NCBI GenBank assembly: GCA_005887945.1 | Contig: VBOL01000065.1 | Coordinates: forward strand, 1 to 37,082 | DNA length: 37,082 nucleotides | Reading direction: 5' to 3' | From: Nitrospirota bacterium | Lineage (GTDB): Bacteria; Nitrospirota; Nitrospiria; Nitrospirales; Nitrospiraceae | Shown here: one piece after another, positions 4,320 through 11,096 of the stretch | Position numbering within the stretch: the stretch's first letter is position 1 | Layout of the letters: every line of letters begins with the position of its first letter | Notes under the pieces: model-generated | The model's input: the letters and a program-made list of their open reading frames with translations, nothing else | Told to the model about the DNA's origin: nothing | The model's database searches: none | Translations under genes and position numbers: made by a program

Positions 4320-4769
4320 ATGATGACGATTGCATCCTCTACCCGCACAGTAGTGAAACAGGCATTAAAATGGACGGCCTTGGCCGGAGTAGTTGTAGTT
4401 ATGGGACAGGCGACCGTGTTAGCAGAAGACAGCGTGTCGGTGCTGATGAAGCAGCCTCTGACCGACATGGCCGGGAAAGTGGCCACAGTGCTGAGCTTGG
4501 ACTATGCGCCGGGAGCCGCATCCGACCCACACGTCCATCCAGGCTCAGTGTTCGCCTATGTCCTGGAGGGAGCGGTGGTGACGCAGGTAGAAGGTGAGCA
4601 GCCCATGACGTATACCAAAGGTGAGCATTGGTATGAGTCTCCCAAGAAGCCGCATCTGGTGTCCAGAAATGCGAGCCTGACGGAGCCGGCCAAATTGTTG
4701 GTCTTGCTTCTGTCGCAGGAAGGCGAAGCGCTGAAGGTGCCGGTGAACGCACCAGACAGCGGTAAATGA
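4320..4769 (+). CDS. Cupin domain protein with N-terminal signal peptide
   Basis: Hydrophobic leader; DPHVHPGSVFAYVLEGAVVTQVEGE cupin motif. Confidence 0.85.
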   Translation: MMTIASSTRTVVKQALKWTALAGVVVVMGQATVLAEDSVSVLMKQPLTDMAGKVATVLSLDYAPGAASDPHVHPGSVFAYVLEGAVVTQVEGEQPMTYTKGEHWYESPKKPHLVSRNASLTEPAKLLVLLLSQEGEALKVPVNAPDSGK

Positions 4770-4808: not shown

Positions 4809-4880
4809 GGAGCGGAGGCGATTTCGCACACCGCGATCACTACGAACTCTTTCGAGGCCTTGCCAAGCGCCTGCCCGTTG
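4809..4880 (+). pseudogene. Fragment of a GAF-domain (FhlA-like) regulator gene, frameshifted
   Basis: About 70 bp closely similar to 8569-8643 inside the intact regulator gene; encodes EAIS-HRDHYELFRGLAKRLP after correcting a 1-nt deletion. Confidence 0.65.
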
Positions 4881-5163: not shown

Positions 5164-5583
5164 TTAGATGTCTGTCGAATTGAACAGCCTGATTCTTTCC
5201 GCTGGAATCCACAATCGAGCTAGTAAATACTCTTTAAATGACGCCTCATATGGCTGAACAGAAATGGCACGTTGCATACAGAGCATCCAAGCGTCTCGCT
5301 CGTCATTTCCAATTGGGAATTGCCGATGAAAATCAGGGAGGTTGACTCCGCCGTAATGCTCGATATACAGCCTGGGGCCGCCTAGCAATCCGCAAAGAAA
5401 GAACGTTAATTTCTTGCGCGACTCGGTTAAATCCTCGGGATGCATGTTCCTAATAACACTGGCTTCCGGAAAGTCATCCATGTTTGAGTAGAACGCATCG
5501 ACTAGATTCGTTATCCCTGTAAGTTCTCCAGCTGCACGATATGAGTTCATACCATTACCGTATCTGTATTCGTTCATTTGCAT
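5164..5583 (-). CDS. Group II truncated haemoglobin-like protein
   Basis: LVDAFYSNMDDFPEASVIRNMHPEDLTESRKKLTFFLCGLLGGPRLYIEHYGG...FPIGNDERDAWMLCMQRAI matches the trHbII pattern. Confidence 0.8.
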   Translation of the reverse strand: MQMNEYRYGNGMNSYRAAGELTGITNLVDAFYSNMDDFPEASVIRNMHPEDLTESRKKLTFFLCGLLGGPRLYIEHYGGVNLPDFHRQFPIGNDERDAWMLCMQRAISVQPYEASFKEYLLARLWIPAERIRLFNSTDI

Positions 5584-5668: not shown

Positions 5669-5959
5669 TCATTTTGCACGAGATGAAGAGGGCCGAGCAG
5701 CGGGGGTGGTTGAGCGAGAGGTGAAAACGATGGGATTAATTGGTTTGTCGTCCATCTGCGCGGCGATGTTGCCAAAAATGCGTTTGGCCGTTCCGAGAGT
5801 CGATGGCAGGTTGTCTGCCTGTCTTTGGAGATCGATCGCAATCAAGTGTCGAGAAATTTTACCGCCGGAATTGCGCGCGATTGCACGTGTCGTCTCCGTA
5901 ACGACAGTGGAGAAAGCGGCGACTATCTCGGTCAGTAAGGCGGCATCGGATTTGGTCAT
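5669..5959 (-). CDS. Small hypothetical protein
   Basis: Open frame with Shine-Dalgarno-like taggag 5 nt before the ATG; no recognised domain. Confidence 0.5.
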   Translation of the reverse strand: MTKSDAALLTEIVAAFSTVVTETTRAIARNSGGKISRHLIAIDLQRQADNLPSTLGTAKRIFGNIAAQMDDKPINPIVFTSRSTTPAARPSSSRAK

Positions 5960-6058: not shown

Positions 6059-7990
6059 TTATCCCCAGACTTCCGCGGTTTCCGAATCGAAAAATGCAAC
6101 GGCCAAGTTGGGAGATTTTTTACGGGCCTGAATCATTCGTTCTGCGCGATAAATGATCGCCTGGTTCGCTTTGGACTCTGGGTCACCGAATAGTCCGACA
6201 AATAAATGCTGCACCTTCCCCTTTTCGATGAGCTTTAGAAAGTGCTCATCGTTTGATGCAAGCGAATGGCCGAATATGAATAGAGCGCCCCCAATGCTCT
6301 GAAAGCTTCGATATGCCTTCGCCAGATAATCGCTATGGCGTATGCGCTCAATTTTCTCGGAGCTAGTACCTTCAGCAACGAACAAAGGAAAATAGTCTCT
6401 GCCAAGGGCATCCCGAATTTGTTCAATGAGTCGGACTCCGGTATTGACCCAAGTGTATTTCTGAATTTCAGTACCTGTGTCAAACACATGAAGTGCTCCG
6501 TGCAGATACCAAACATTTTGATCATGGCTCTGCCCAGGTTCCCACGTAACGTAATCAGTTTCGTAGTCATAATCTGGCTTTCGAAAGCCATCGTCGGATG
6601 AAGGGTTTTGGTCACCTTCTGTGTGCATTAACGCCCAATACAGAAGGAGATCGTAGTTGAGCGTGTATATAAGATCGAAATGCCCTAGGAATTTTCGGCA
6701 AGAAGCGTATTCATCCTCGGTGACATTGCCTGGGTGTTCAGGGTGACTTGACGCGATCGTCTTAACAAGGACCTCCCGGAGACCCTCGGCGTCTCTCAGC
6801 ATCGCGTCTCGGATAGGTGCGGGAGCAAGTGGGTATGCAGACAGGAGCTTTACCGCATCCCGTAGAGTCTTAATCACTTTTTCAAAGTCTGATGTGCCAA
6901 GGGCATCAAATGCATTGCGAGCAGAGGGCGATAGCATAGTGAAATCGGCGCGCTCGAAGAGCTTCCCATACACAAATATGTCGGGCCGACAGGCAATGCT
7001 AAATCCGTTGCCCAGCATCGCATGACGTTTTGAGTATGGCTCTGATTTCTTAATTGCTTGCCTGAAGGTGAGTAAAGTCATGATCGTGAGCGCTAGCGTT
7101 GCGGTTGACCTGCTCGCGCATGGGGGCGAAGCCCGGTGGAGCGGGCCGGGTCGAATCGCTGGTTGGCCATTTGGGATGAGCATCTTTCTGAAATCGGCAA
7201 TCTTGTGAGCCTTCACAACAAAACCAAGGTTGTTTGGAATCTTGGACAAGCTGATAGGGATATGAGCTAGCGGAATTTCGATTGTTTGGATTTCTCCCTC
7301 CGCGACATGCTGGGGGCCCGCAAACAAGACGCCAAGAAGAATAATACGGTCACTGCCGAGGTTAAGTCTTCCTTTTGCATCAAGGTATCCACCTTGGTCG
7401 AAAATGAGGACGGGACTTCCGCTGGACCCGGGGAAGCAAGCGCAGTCGATTACAAATATTGGGAGGCCGTTATAGTCGTACTTCGGGTTCGTCGCTGTAA
7501 TACCTCGCCTAACGATCGGCATGTTGTTCTTTTCATCCCAAATGCCGTTCGGGTAGCCGATCATCGTAATGTTTTCGAGACCGGAAAGATCGGCAAGCTT
7601 TTCGGCTGTAGGCAGCAAATCTTCCCCAATCGGTGGGGCAAAGAATTTGATCCCTTTTGCCTCAGCTTGATGATAAAGGGGTGCAATAGGAAAAACTGCT
7701 AAGTCAACACTTTCCTCTGTGTGCTTCCGCCATAGGCTTTCAAAGTTGTCGAGAACGACCCGTTCAGTTGATCCGAGAATTGGTTCGCCCTGCTCGTTGC
7801 TCTTGGTCAGTACGAAAGTACCGACCTTGGAGTCTTTGATTACGTGTTTATTGGTGACAGTAACGGGCACATTTGTTTTTTCATCCACCTTGAACGAAAA
7901 AAAGAACCCGGTCCCGGTAGACGCGCGATTGTTACTTAGCGCGCATTCGAGCTGGACAGTCGTGTGCATTAGAGTTTCGGCGAGAGTCAT
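6059..7990 (-). CDS. Trypsin-like serine protease fused to a SIR2-like/DUF4917-type domain
   Basis: N-terminal half: VTNKHVIKD, VDLAVFPI, CFPGSSGSPVLI (His-Asp-Ser). C-terminal half: LGNGFSIAC, IYTLNYDLLLYW, WYLHGALHVF, LFIFGHSLASNDEHF. Confidence 0.8.
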   Translation of the reverse strand: MTLAETLMHTTVQLECALSNNRASTGTGFFFSFKVDEKTNVPVTVTNKHVIKDSKVGTFVLTKSNEQGEPILGSTERVVLDNFESLWRKHTEESVDLAVFPIAPLYHQAEAKGIKFFAPPIGEDLLPTAEKLADLSGLENITMIGYPNGIWDEKNNMPIVRRGITATNPKYDYNGLPIFVIDCACFPGSSGSPVLIFDQGGYLDAKGRLNLGSDRIILLGVLFAGPQHVAEGEIQTIEIPLAHIPISLSKIPNNLGFVVKAHKIADFRKMLIPNGQPAIRPGPLHRASPPCASRSTATLALTIMTLLTFRQAIKKSEPYSKRHAMLGNGFSIACRPDIFVYGKLFERADFTMLSPSARNAFDALGTSDFEKVIKTLRDAVKLLSAYPLAPAPIRDAMLRDAEGLREVLVKTIASSHPEHPGNVTEDEYASCRKFLGHFDLIYTLNYDLLLYWALMHTEGDQNPSSDDGFRKPDYDYETDYVTWEPGQSHDQNVWYLHGALHVFDTGTEIQKYTWVNTGVRLIEQIRDALGRDYFPLFVAEGTSSEKIERIRHSDYLAKAYRSFQSIGGALFIFGHSLASNDEHFLKLIEKGKVQHLFVGLFGDPESKANQAIIYRAERMIQARKKSPNLAVAFFDSETAEVWG

Positions 7991-8021
7991 GTGCTATCAA
8001 ATGGCTAGCTAATCAGTGAGC

Positions 8022-8081: not shown

Positions 8082-8110
8082 ATTGTCATGAACTTTTGAA
8101 CATGTGTCAA
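8082..8110 (-). promoter_or_regulatory. Candidate sigma70 promoter of the protease/SIR2-like gene
   Basis: Minus strand TTGACA - 17 nt - GACAAT; spacer carries direct repeat GTTCA-AAA-GTTCA. Confidence 0.45.
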
Positions 8111-8164
8111 TGCGACATTCCAGGATAAGACCGACGGCACGGCAGCGGACTTTCCCCAGTTCGC

Positions 8165-8278
8165 TCTCAGGGGGGCAGCCAGACTGTCCTTCACTGCGCG
8201 CATTGAGGCAGCACATTCTGATCGTGCGGCCTCAGCGAGTAAGAAGGATGGACTGGCTGCCCCCCTATACTTCTGAGA
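8165..8278. repeat. Long structured hairpin element, unit A
   Basis: GGGGGGCAGCCAG (8170-8182) / CTGGCTGCCCCCC (8253-8265) plus TCCTTC/GAAGGA and TCTCAG/CTGAGA; core ACTGCGCGCATTGAGGCAGCACATTCTGATCGTGCGGCCTCAGCGAG. Confidence 0.85.
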
Positions 8279-8364
8279 TCTCTCGCTACCTCTTTAGGGA
8301 TGGGGGCTGATTGCTCTTCCACTGCGCGCGTTGCGCGTATTTCTTCGAACTCTCTTCATCCATC

Positions 8365-8476
8365 TTCAAGGGAGTGGCCAAGGTTGCCCTCAACTGCGCG
8401 CATCGAACGAGCACATTCTTATCGTGCGCGTTCTGCGAGCAAAGAGGGCATCTGGCCGCTCCCTCCTCCCTCTTGA
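8365..8476. repeat. Long structured hairpin element, unit B
   Basis: AGGGAGTGGCCA / TGGCCGCTCCCT and TGCCCTC/GAGGGCA; core ACTGCGCGCATCGAACGAGCACATTCTTATCGTGCGCGTTCTGCGAG. Confidence 0.85.
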
Positions 8477-8504: not shown

Positions 8505-11096
8505 GTGTCTATGGATAGGCACTCCTCATCCCCCTGTGAGACGCTGGCGGAGCGGTACCAAGCTCTGCTGGAGGTCGCAGAGGCAATCTCCGCACACCGC
8601 GATCTCCACGAGCTCTTTCGAGACCTCGCTCAGCGCCTTCCCCGAGTGGTCCATGTGAACTTTGTGGCTCTGTCTTTACACGATCCTGTTCGAAACACGA
8701 TGCGACTGCACGCCATTCAGGCGAACGTGCCGGCTGATCTCGTGGGCGGGCATGAGGGGCCGGTCGAAGAGAGCCCCGCCGGATTGGTGTGGCAGACGCA
8801 GGAACCCATCATAGTGCCGAATCTTGCCGAAGAACGTCGCTGGCCGAAAGTCACTCAACACATGAGTGAGGACGGCGTGAACTCGTTTTGCTTCGTTCCT
8901 CTGACCACCGCCGTGCGGCGGTTGGGTGCAATGGGATTTTTGAGCTTGCAGAAAGAGGCCTATGGTGAAACGGACCTGGAATTTCTCCAGCAAGTCGCTA
9001 AACAAATCGCTGTGGCGGTGGACAATGTCCTCCATCATCAAGACTTGATCCATGGACAGGACCGTTTACGTCTCCTGCTGGAGGTATCCGAATCCATTGC
9101 ATCACACCGCGACCTTGAAGAGCTGTTTCGTGATCTCGCTCAACGGCTCCCTCAGATCGTCCCGTTCGATTACATCAACGCAGTCTTGCATGAGCCCGCG
9201 CGCGATGTCATGCGCCTGTGGCTCTTGGTGACCACGACACCCAGCGCGATCAGTCCCGGTCTGGAGCTATCCGTCGATGAGTCTCCCGGGGGATTGGTGT
9301 GGGAAACCCAACAGCCTTTAACCGTGAACGATATCACGCAAGAGCAACGTTTTCCGAAGCTAATGGCCATGCTGCGCGAGAACGGCGTCCAATCCTTCGG
9401 TGTGGTTCCTCTCACAACGGCGCAGCGTCGTCTAGGGGCGATGGGATTTGGGAGCTATCAGCGGAGAACCTATCAGGAGGCAGAGATCAACTTCATGCAG
9501 CAGGTGGCGAATCAGGTCGCTGTTGCCGTGGACAATGTATTGCACGCGGCGAGCGCCCAATCTGCCCAGCAGCAGCTGAAGTACGAACGAGATCGGCTAC
9601 GCCTGGTGCTGGAGATCAACAACGCCGTCGTGTCGCACCTCGAATTGAGAGAACTCCTGAAAGCGATCTCCGGCTGCCTTGGACGTGTGATCCCTCACGA
9701 TCTCGCGTGGTTTTGTCTCTATGATCCCGCTACTCACCAGTTGCAGACTCACGCGCTGGACTTCCCTAGCCATCAAGACTTTGCCGAAGCGGGAGATCCC
9801 ATTCCGTTGGAAGGAACCCCGGAAGGGTTGGCGTTCACTACTCAGCAGCCAGTTCTGATCAGAAATCTCAGCCTCACCGAGTTTCCCGCGGAGATCATCA
9901 AGCGAGGGGCCGCCGCAGGTCTGAAATCCGGTTGCGCCGTTCCTCTGATCTCGCACGGGCGAGCACTGGGCACCCTGAGCGTCGTCAGTACACATGCGGA
10001 GGCTTTCAGCGACGACGATGCAAAATTGTTCAGCTGGATCGGCGCACAGGTTGCGCTCGCCGCTGCGAATTCAATGGCCTATCAGGAAATCTCATCGCTG
10101 AGGGACAAGCTGGCGAAGGAAAAGCTGTACCTGGAGGAGGAAATCCAGACGGAGTATAACTTCGAGGAAATCGTCGGTGACAGCCGGGCGCTCAAACTGC
10201 TCCTCAAAGAGATCCAGACTGTGGCTGCGACTGATTCGACTGTCCTGATTTTGGGCGAAACAGGTAGTGGGAAGGAACTCGTTGCGCGGGCGCTTCACAA
10301 TAGCAGCGGTCGGCGAGAGCGAACATTCGTCAAGCTCAATTGCGCCGCGATTCCGACGGGGTTATTGGAAAGCGAGCTCTTTGGACATGAAAAAGGCGCG
10401 TTCACCGGCGCGATTGCCACCAAGATCGGCCGGTTTGAGTTGGCCGACCGCGGGACGATCTTCCTCGATGAGGTGGGGGAAATTCCGTTGGAATTACAAG
10501 TAAAGTTGCTCCGAGTGCTCCAAGAGCAGGAGTTCGAACGCCTGGGCAGCACCAGGACGATTCATGTCAATGTCCGCGTCATCGCCGCGACCAACCGTGA
10601 TCTTGGTCGGATGGTGGAGGAACAGGAGTTTCGCAGCGATCTGTATTATAGGCTCAGGGTTTTCCCGATTACCGTCCCTCCCTTGCGCGATCGCCCAGAA
10701 GATATTCCCTTGTTAGTTCGACACTTTGCTCAGAAATTCGCCCAACGGATGAAGAAGCGCATCGAAACGATCCCGTCGGAGGCCATGAAAGCGCTCCAAG
10801 CCTATCCCTGGCCCGGCAACGTGCGGGAGCTGGAGAATTTCATAGAGCGAGCGGTGATTCTTACCCAAGGACCAGATCTATTTGTGTCGCTCGCCGAATT
10901 AAAGCGGACGCCGAGTCACACAACGAACTCCAAGCCCACGACTCTCGAACAAGCCGAACGCGAACATATTCTCAAGGCACTTCGCGAGTCGGAATGGATC
11001 ATTGGTGGTCCTGCAGGTGCCGCTGCCAGGCTCGGGATGAAGCGAACAACCCTGCAATCCAAGATGCAGAAGCTCAACATTTCACGACCACGATAG
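8505..11096 (+). CDS. Sigma54-dependent Fis-family transcriptional activator with three GAF domains (FhlA-like)
   Basis: Three GAF-like repeats, then GETGSGKELVARALH, GAFTGA, FLDEVGEIPLELQVKLLRVLQE, C-terminal HTH. Confidence 0.93.
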   Translation: MSMDRHSSSPCETLAERYQALLEVAEAISAHRDLHELFRDLAQRLPRVVHVNFVALSLHDPVRNTMRLHAIQANVPADLVGGHEGPVEESPAGLVWQTQEPIIVPNLAEERRWPKVTQHMSEDGVNSFCFVPLTTAVRRLGAMGFLSLQKEAYGETDLEFLQQVAKQIAVAVDNVLHHQDLIHGQDRLRLLLEVSESIASHRDLEELFRDLAQRLPQIVPFDYINAVLHEPARDVMRLWLLVTTTPSAISPGLELSVDESPGGLVWETQQPLTVNDITQEQRFPKLMAMLRENGVQSFGVVPLTTAQRRLGAMGFGSYQRRTYQEAEINFMQQVANQVAVAVDNVLHAASAQSAQQQLKYERDRLRLVLEINNAVVSHLELRELLKAISGCLGRVIPHDLAWFCLYDPATHQLQTHALDFPSHQDFAEAGDPIPLEGTPEGLAFTTQQPVLIRNLSLTEFPAEIIKRGAAAGLKSGCAVPLISHGRALGTLSVVSTHAEAFSDDDAKLFSWIGAQVALAAANSMAYQEISSLRDKLAKEKLYLEEEIQTEYNFEEIVGDSRALKLLLKEIQTVAATDSTVLILGETGSGKELVARALHNSSGRRERTFVKLNCAAIPTGLLESELFGHEKGAFTGAIATKIGRFELADRGTIFLDEVGEIPLELQVKLLRVLQEQEFERLGSTRTIHVNVRVIAATNRDLGRMVEEQEFRSDLYYRLRVFPITVPPLRDRPEDIPLLVRHFAQKFAQRMKKRIETIPSEAMKALQAYPWPGNVRELENFIERAVILTQGPDLFVSLAELKRTPSHTTNSKPTTLEQAEREHILKALRESEWIIGGPAGAAARLGMKRTTLQSKMQKLNISRPR

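What the first reader, a model, noticed from the sequence alone, without database searches (positions are those of the whole stretch)
6059..7990. Trypsin-like protease joined to a SIR2/DUF4917-like domain: candidate defence or stress effector
One 643-aa minus-strand ORF carries a complete-looking His/Asp/Ser protease (VTNKHVIKD, VDLAVF, CFPGSSGSP). It continues in frame into a domain with SIR2-like landmarks (LGNGFSIAC, TLNYD, LHG, FGHSL..D). SIR2-like NADases and trypsin-like modules both occur in known antiphage systems. Finding both in one protein, beside a hairpin array and an unknown small ORF, makes this the best novel-system candidate here. A defence role is inference; nothing was tested.
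Basis: partly seen in the sequence, partly recalled or inferred. Interest (0 to 1): 0.78.

Follow-up and report, generated by a model that had tools for sequence, protein, structure and literature searches.

The report
Two fused solo defence-candidate gene cassettes
A 643-residue bacterial ORF joins a trypsin-like protease to a SIR2-like domain, but the two halves are separate, already catalogued single-gene candidate phage-defence proteins elsewhere, and here they run together most likely because one stop codon at the end of a mobile gene cassette was lost.

Summary
The ORF is real (6059-7990, minus strand, 643 aa) and both domain calls are right. Residues 1-275 are a trypsin-like protease (PADLOC PDC-S45; HtrA-type fold; H49/D96/S190 invariant). 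Residues 304-643 are a complete DUF4917 protein (PADLOC PDC-S21; best fold match the SIR2 subunit of antiphage SIR2-HerA). The reading as a purpose-built protease-SIR2 system is not supported. The closest protease relatives (88-89% aa identity, Chlorobaculum and betaproteobacterial MAGs) are standalone 275-aa cassette-type genes whose TAA stop lies in an attC-like core, GGCTAAC. The window has GGCCAAC, so the ORF reads through an 84-nt, 69% GC spacer to the native DUF4917 start, Met304. Across 53 loci with protease and 49 with DUF4917 homologues, only the window has both. DUF4917 alone often sits beside type I RM, retron Eco8/ABC-3C or restriction genes, so a defence role for the halves is plausible but untested. 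Most likely this is a fused cassette pair of two known candidate families. Whether one polypeptide is made, or the base is an assembly error, is open. The neighbouring hairpin array is a genome-wide REP-like repeat.

The parts
7166..7990 (-). Trypsin-like serine protease half (residues 1-275; triad H49, D96, S190), a PDC-S45 / phrog_7688 family gene
   Evidence: standalone 275-aa homologues in L005 and L006
7163..7165 (-). CAA codon (Gln276) where the relatives have the TAA stop
7162..7168 (-). GGCCAAC, counterpart of the attC R''-like core GGCTAAC of the relatives
   Evidence: inference from relatives
7082..7165 (-). 84-nt spacer (residues 276-303, QPAIRPGPLHRASPPCASRSTATLALTI), 69% GC against 49% on both sides; degenerate cassette end
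   Evidence: not detected as an intact attC by motif scans
6062..7081 (-). Complete DUF4917 protein, SIR2-like fold (Met304 to Gly643; N445, D447, H497 conserved), a PDC-S21 / phrog_30889 family gene
8003..8009 (-). GCTAGCC, counterpart of the R' core GTTAGCC at which homology upstream of the protease begins in L005 and L006
8024..8056 (-). 33-nt repeat upstream of the protease ORF; copy 1 of a flanking pair
   Evidence: only two copies in the genome
5988..6020 (-). 33-nt repeat downstream of DUF4917; copy 2 of the flanking pair
8082..8110 (-). Possible sigma-70-type promoter TTGACA-17-GACAAT upstream of the ATG
   Evidence: number of sites found is not above chance

Best explanation
The ORF is a fused pair of originally independent, horizontally transferred single-gene units: a trypsin-like protease of a gene-cassette type (PDC-S45 family) followed by a DUF4917 SIR2-like protein (PDC-S21 family). 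The protease cassette ended with a TAA stop inside its attC R''-like core; a T-to-C change made this CAA, and the stop-free spacer lets translation run in frame to the native start of DUF4917. Each half most likely keeps its own function: the DUF4917 half as an NAD+-consuming effector that stops phage growth by NAD+ depletion, as other SIR2 defence enzymes do (inferred from fold, conserved residues and neighbourhoods), and the protease half by cleaving an unknown target (inferred). The main effect of the fusion would be to couple translation of the second gene, which has no evident ribosome-binding site, to the first (inferred). Shown here: domains, predicted folds, the relatives' stop and boundaries, absence of the fusion in every other locus examined. 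Inferred: direction of the change, NADase activity, defence role.
For: Relatives L005 and L006 have standalone 275-aa genes ending IPNG-TAA, with TAA inside GGCTAAC followed by a strong attC-like stem; upstream homology begins at GTTAGCC while sequences beyond diverge. L048 (G317) has a group II intron just after the corresponding stem, and that genome encodes a true integron integrase (463.9 bits, over cut-off); L049 has an attC-like site GGCTAAC..GTTAGGT upstream of the gene. PDC-S21 starts exactly at Met304 and relatives start there too. Only the window carries both among 53 protease and 49 DUF4917 loci. The spacer is 69% GC against 49%, with a 0.64 chance of no stop in 28 codons. The protease is under strong purifying selection, dN/dS about 0.04. 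DUF4917's best fold match is SIR2 of SIR2-HerA, 4.8e-9. DUF4917 sits next to hsdS, hsdR, hsdM/S/R, retron Eco8 and ABC-3C, HaeIII. Fused cassettes are a described phenomenon (PMC4670013).
Against: The window's own spacer is not recognisable as an intact attC, and the assembly holds no integron integrase over the cut-off (the two best hits read as XerD/XerC-type by inspection). No intermediate (both cassettes adjacent, stop intact) was found. One MAG only: the critical base could be an assembly or sequencing error. dS is near saturation, so the change could be old and the fusion maintained.
Confidence: 0.72

Rival explanations
1. A functional two-domain defence protein: the protease senses or is triggered by infection and controls the SIR2-like NADase, for instance by cleaving the linker.
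For: Both halves intact with conserved catalytic residues; 643-aa frame fully open; Pro/Ala/Ser/Thr-rich linker; both families are defence candidates.
Against: Fusion and even adjacency absent from every other locus examined; linker corresponds to a non-coding cassette end; TAA present in the two nearest relatives.
Confidence: 0.1
2. Sequencing, assembly or strain-mixture error: the real genome has TAA and two separate genes.
For: Single fragmented MAG (366 contigs), single-base difference from relatives at a stop codon.
Against: The spacer differs from relatives at many positions, so CAA is not an isolated oddity; no other stop or frameshift in 1.9 kb.
Confidence: 0.12
3. Not defence: cargo genes of mobile elements with stress, competition or other roles.
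For: Several neighbourhoods show no defence genes, e.g. pTTS12; the protease often lies near resolvase-type recombinases; no experimental test found in the literature searched.
Against: Repeated adjacency of DUF4917 to RM, retron and ABC-3C genes; SIR2 antiphage fold; carriage in viral/prophage contigs.
Confidence: 0.3

Closest known systems
PADLOC PDC-S45 (phrog_7688, Trypsin_2)
   Same: Residues 2-272 match almost the full model; triad conserved
   Different: Family members examined are standalone (about 275-300 aa); here the stop is lost
PADLOC PDC-S21 (phrog_30889, DUF4917)
   Same: Residues 304-642 match the full model from position 1; conserved SIR2-like motifs
   Different: Family members examined are standalone; here preceded in frame by a protease
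SIR2 subunit of SIR2-HerA and DSR2 (antiphage NADases)
   Same: Fold (Foldseek 4.8e-9 for SIR2-HerA; DSR2 weaker at 2.8e-3) and TxNYD / LHG landmarks
   Different: Only 11-15% identity; no HerA partner or DSR2 C-terminal sensor; NADase activity untested
Fused integron gene cassettes (e.g. blaGES-1/aacA4, PMC4670013)
   Same: Two cassette ORFs joined after degeneration of the first attC
   Different: There both coding regions are retained and co-transcribed as one cassette; here a stop change gives one continuous ORF, with no integron integrase found in the assembly

Membership tests
PDC-S45 protease | Full-length match to the PADLOC model | tested here: met
   5.5e-108, model 15-284 of 293
PDC-S45 protease | His/Asp/Ser triad in a chymotrypsin-like fold | tested here: met
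   H49, D96, S190 invariant in 11 sequences; HtrA/Deg fold hits
PDC-S21 / DUF4917 | Full-length match to the PADLOC and Pfam models | tested here: met
   2.1e-124, model 1-334 of 336; PF16263 1.1e-83
SIR2-type NADase | SIR2 (Rossmann-type) fold | tested here: met
   pLDDT 88.5; best PDB hits all SIR2
SIR2-type NADase | Conserved catalytic/NAD-site residues | tested here: met
   NGFS, T443/N445/D447, L496-H497-G498 invariant in 24 sequences; their role is inferred from the SIR2 family
SIR2-type NADase | NAD+ hydrolysis | not testable with these tools
   needs an enzyme assay
SIR2-HerA system | Adjacent herA gene | tested here: not met
   Neighbours in the window are a 96-aa ORF, a globin, a cupin and a sigma-54 regulator
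Integron gene cassette | attC with R''/R' cores bounding the unit | tested here: inconclusive
   Visible in relatives, degenerate in the window
Integron gene cassette | Integron integrase in the genome | tested here: not met
   No TIGR02249 hit over cut-off in the assembly; best hits XerD/XerC-type by inspection; MAG incomplete, and cassettes without integrase are known
Protease-SIR2 fused system | Same fusion in independent genomes | tested here: not met
   None among the other protease and DUF4917 loci fetched

The most novel reading that the evidence does not exclude
The stop loss created a working two-enzyme defence protein in which the protease controls or releases a SIR2-like NADase, an example of gene cassettes assembling a new immune architecture by a single base change.
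Probability: 0.1. Interest if true: 0.65.

Novelty: new member of a known kind. Interest (0 to 1): 0.3.

Why it matters
It adds support (SIR2 antiphage fold, conserved catalytic residues, RM/retron neighbours) to DUF4917/PDC-S21 as a solo SIR2-like defence gene that can be tested directly, and shows that a PDC-S45 protease travels as a cassette-like unit between phyla. It also warns against reading a fused ORF in one MAG as a designed multi-domain system.

Tried and rejected
Searches with the whole protein or its halves in genome contigs, 61 relatives, 396 genomes of the phylum, viral contigs, plasmids and phages: no second fusion. Rfam for anything attC-like in the window: nothing. Two home-made attC scans did not find intact sites in the window and have little power. 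Integron integrase in own genome: none over cut-off. Protein against PDB by sequence: no useful hit. 33-nt flanking repeat as a genome-wide attC family: only two copies. Literature on DUF4917: one paper that mentions it in passing; PDC-S45 named in one paper, on S. meliloti prophages (PMC12429752).

Full report
Observation. ORF 6059-7990(-) is real: 643 codons, ATG to TAA. It lies in a low-GC stretch (about 48% against 55-60% around) on the strand opposite to the flanking genes at 4320-4769 and 8505-11096. Pfam and PADLOC place two families side by side: Trypsin_2/PDC-S45 (2-272) and DUF4917/PDC-S21 (304-642). PHROGs also treats them as two families, 7688 and 30889.

Folds. AlphaFold2 on 11 and 24 sequences gave confident models (pLDDT 83.3 and 88.5). 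Foldseek returns HtrA/Deg-type proteases for the first half (1.3e-9) and, for the second, the SIR2 subunit of the antiphage SIR2-HerA complex first (4.8e-9), then sirtuins, with DSR2 weaker. The protease triad H49/D96/S190 is invariant. In DUF4917, N445, D447 and H497 (TxNYD, LHG) and the NGFS and GH motifs are invariant in 24 sequences. Reading these as an NAD site is inference from the SIR2 family.

Why the two halves are joined. The nearest protease genes, in a Chlorobaculum MAG (L005) and a betaproteobacterial MAG (L006), are 88-89% identical in protein and stop after residue 275. Their TAA is part of GGCTAAC, followed by a long stem. Homology upstream begins at GTTAGCC, just before the ATG, while the sequence beyond differs. 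These are the expected limits of a gene cassette, R'' and R' of attC. In L048 (same family as the window's genome) a group II intron follows the corresponding stem and the genome encodes an integron integrase; L049 has an attC-like site before the gene. In the window the same position reads GGCCAAC: TAA has become CAA. The next 84 nt are 69% GC, lack a stop (chance 0.64 at that composition) and end at the ATG of DUF4917, which is the native start in relatives and position 1 of PDC-S21.

Is the fusion a system? Profiles of both families run over all fetched loci found 53 with the protease and 49 with DUF4917; the only ones with both are copies of the window. Some loci are overlapping cuts of one genome, so the independent number is lower, and many hold only 1.5-5 kb on each side. 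Plasmids with one family are not the plasmids with the other. The fusion is thus a single case in one MAG. The protease half has dN/dS about 0.04 against its relatives, so the gene has been functional over its history; this says nothing about the time since fusion.

Defence link. DUF4917 genes lie beside hsdS in a congener (hsdS read by eye from the translated sequence), behind hsdR on a Methylobacter plasmid, before hsdM/hsdS/hsdR on pRL11, between retron Eco8 and an ABC-three-component system on a Klebsiella plasmid and near a HaeIII gene; others show none. This is a hand-picked sample without a background rate. The protease is found in viral/prophage contigs, on an Acinetobacter plasmid with a restriction endonuclease about 4 kb away, and as PDC-S45 in S. 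meliloti prophages (PMC12429752).

Mechanism and limits. The likeliest reading is two solo genes, one an NAD+-consuming SIR2-like effector, the other a protease with unknown target, joined by a cassette-end mutation that may couple translation. Fused cassettes have precedent (PMC4670013). Not shown: NADase activity, phage protection, translation of the fusion, correctness of the CAA base. The window's own cassette ends are too degenerate to call by motif, and no integron integrase over the cut-off is present in the assembly.

Noticed in passing
8160-8460: The 'hairpin array' is a REP-like palindromic repeat with 57 matches in the genome, on many contigs; not tied to this gene.
   Followed up: partly
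4825-4876 and 8591-8642: 52-nt direct repeats (85%) flank the low-GC island; the right copy lies in the GAF region of the sigma-54 regulator at 8505-11096, and the left copy looks like a remnant of a similar gene.
   Followed up: partly
5164-5583: Bacterial globin gene (PF01152, 1.2e-22) in the same low-GC island, same strand.
   Followed up: no
5669-5959: 96-aa ORF with no family match, between DUF4917 and the globin gene, preceded by the 33-nt repeat.
   Followed up: no
L052 (C332) and L051 (C114): Second copies of both families elsewhere in the genome look decayed: the protease copy is frameshifted, the DUF4917 copy has an internal TAG.
   Followed up: partly
L049:7369-8598: In G192 the protease homologue has lost its normal C-terminal frame and runs on to 409 aa, another read-through in a cassette-like context.
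   Followed up: partly
L048:5985-7900: Group II intron with a 447-aa ORF right after the protease gene, at the cassette-end stem.
   Followed up: partly
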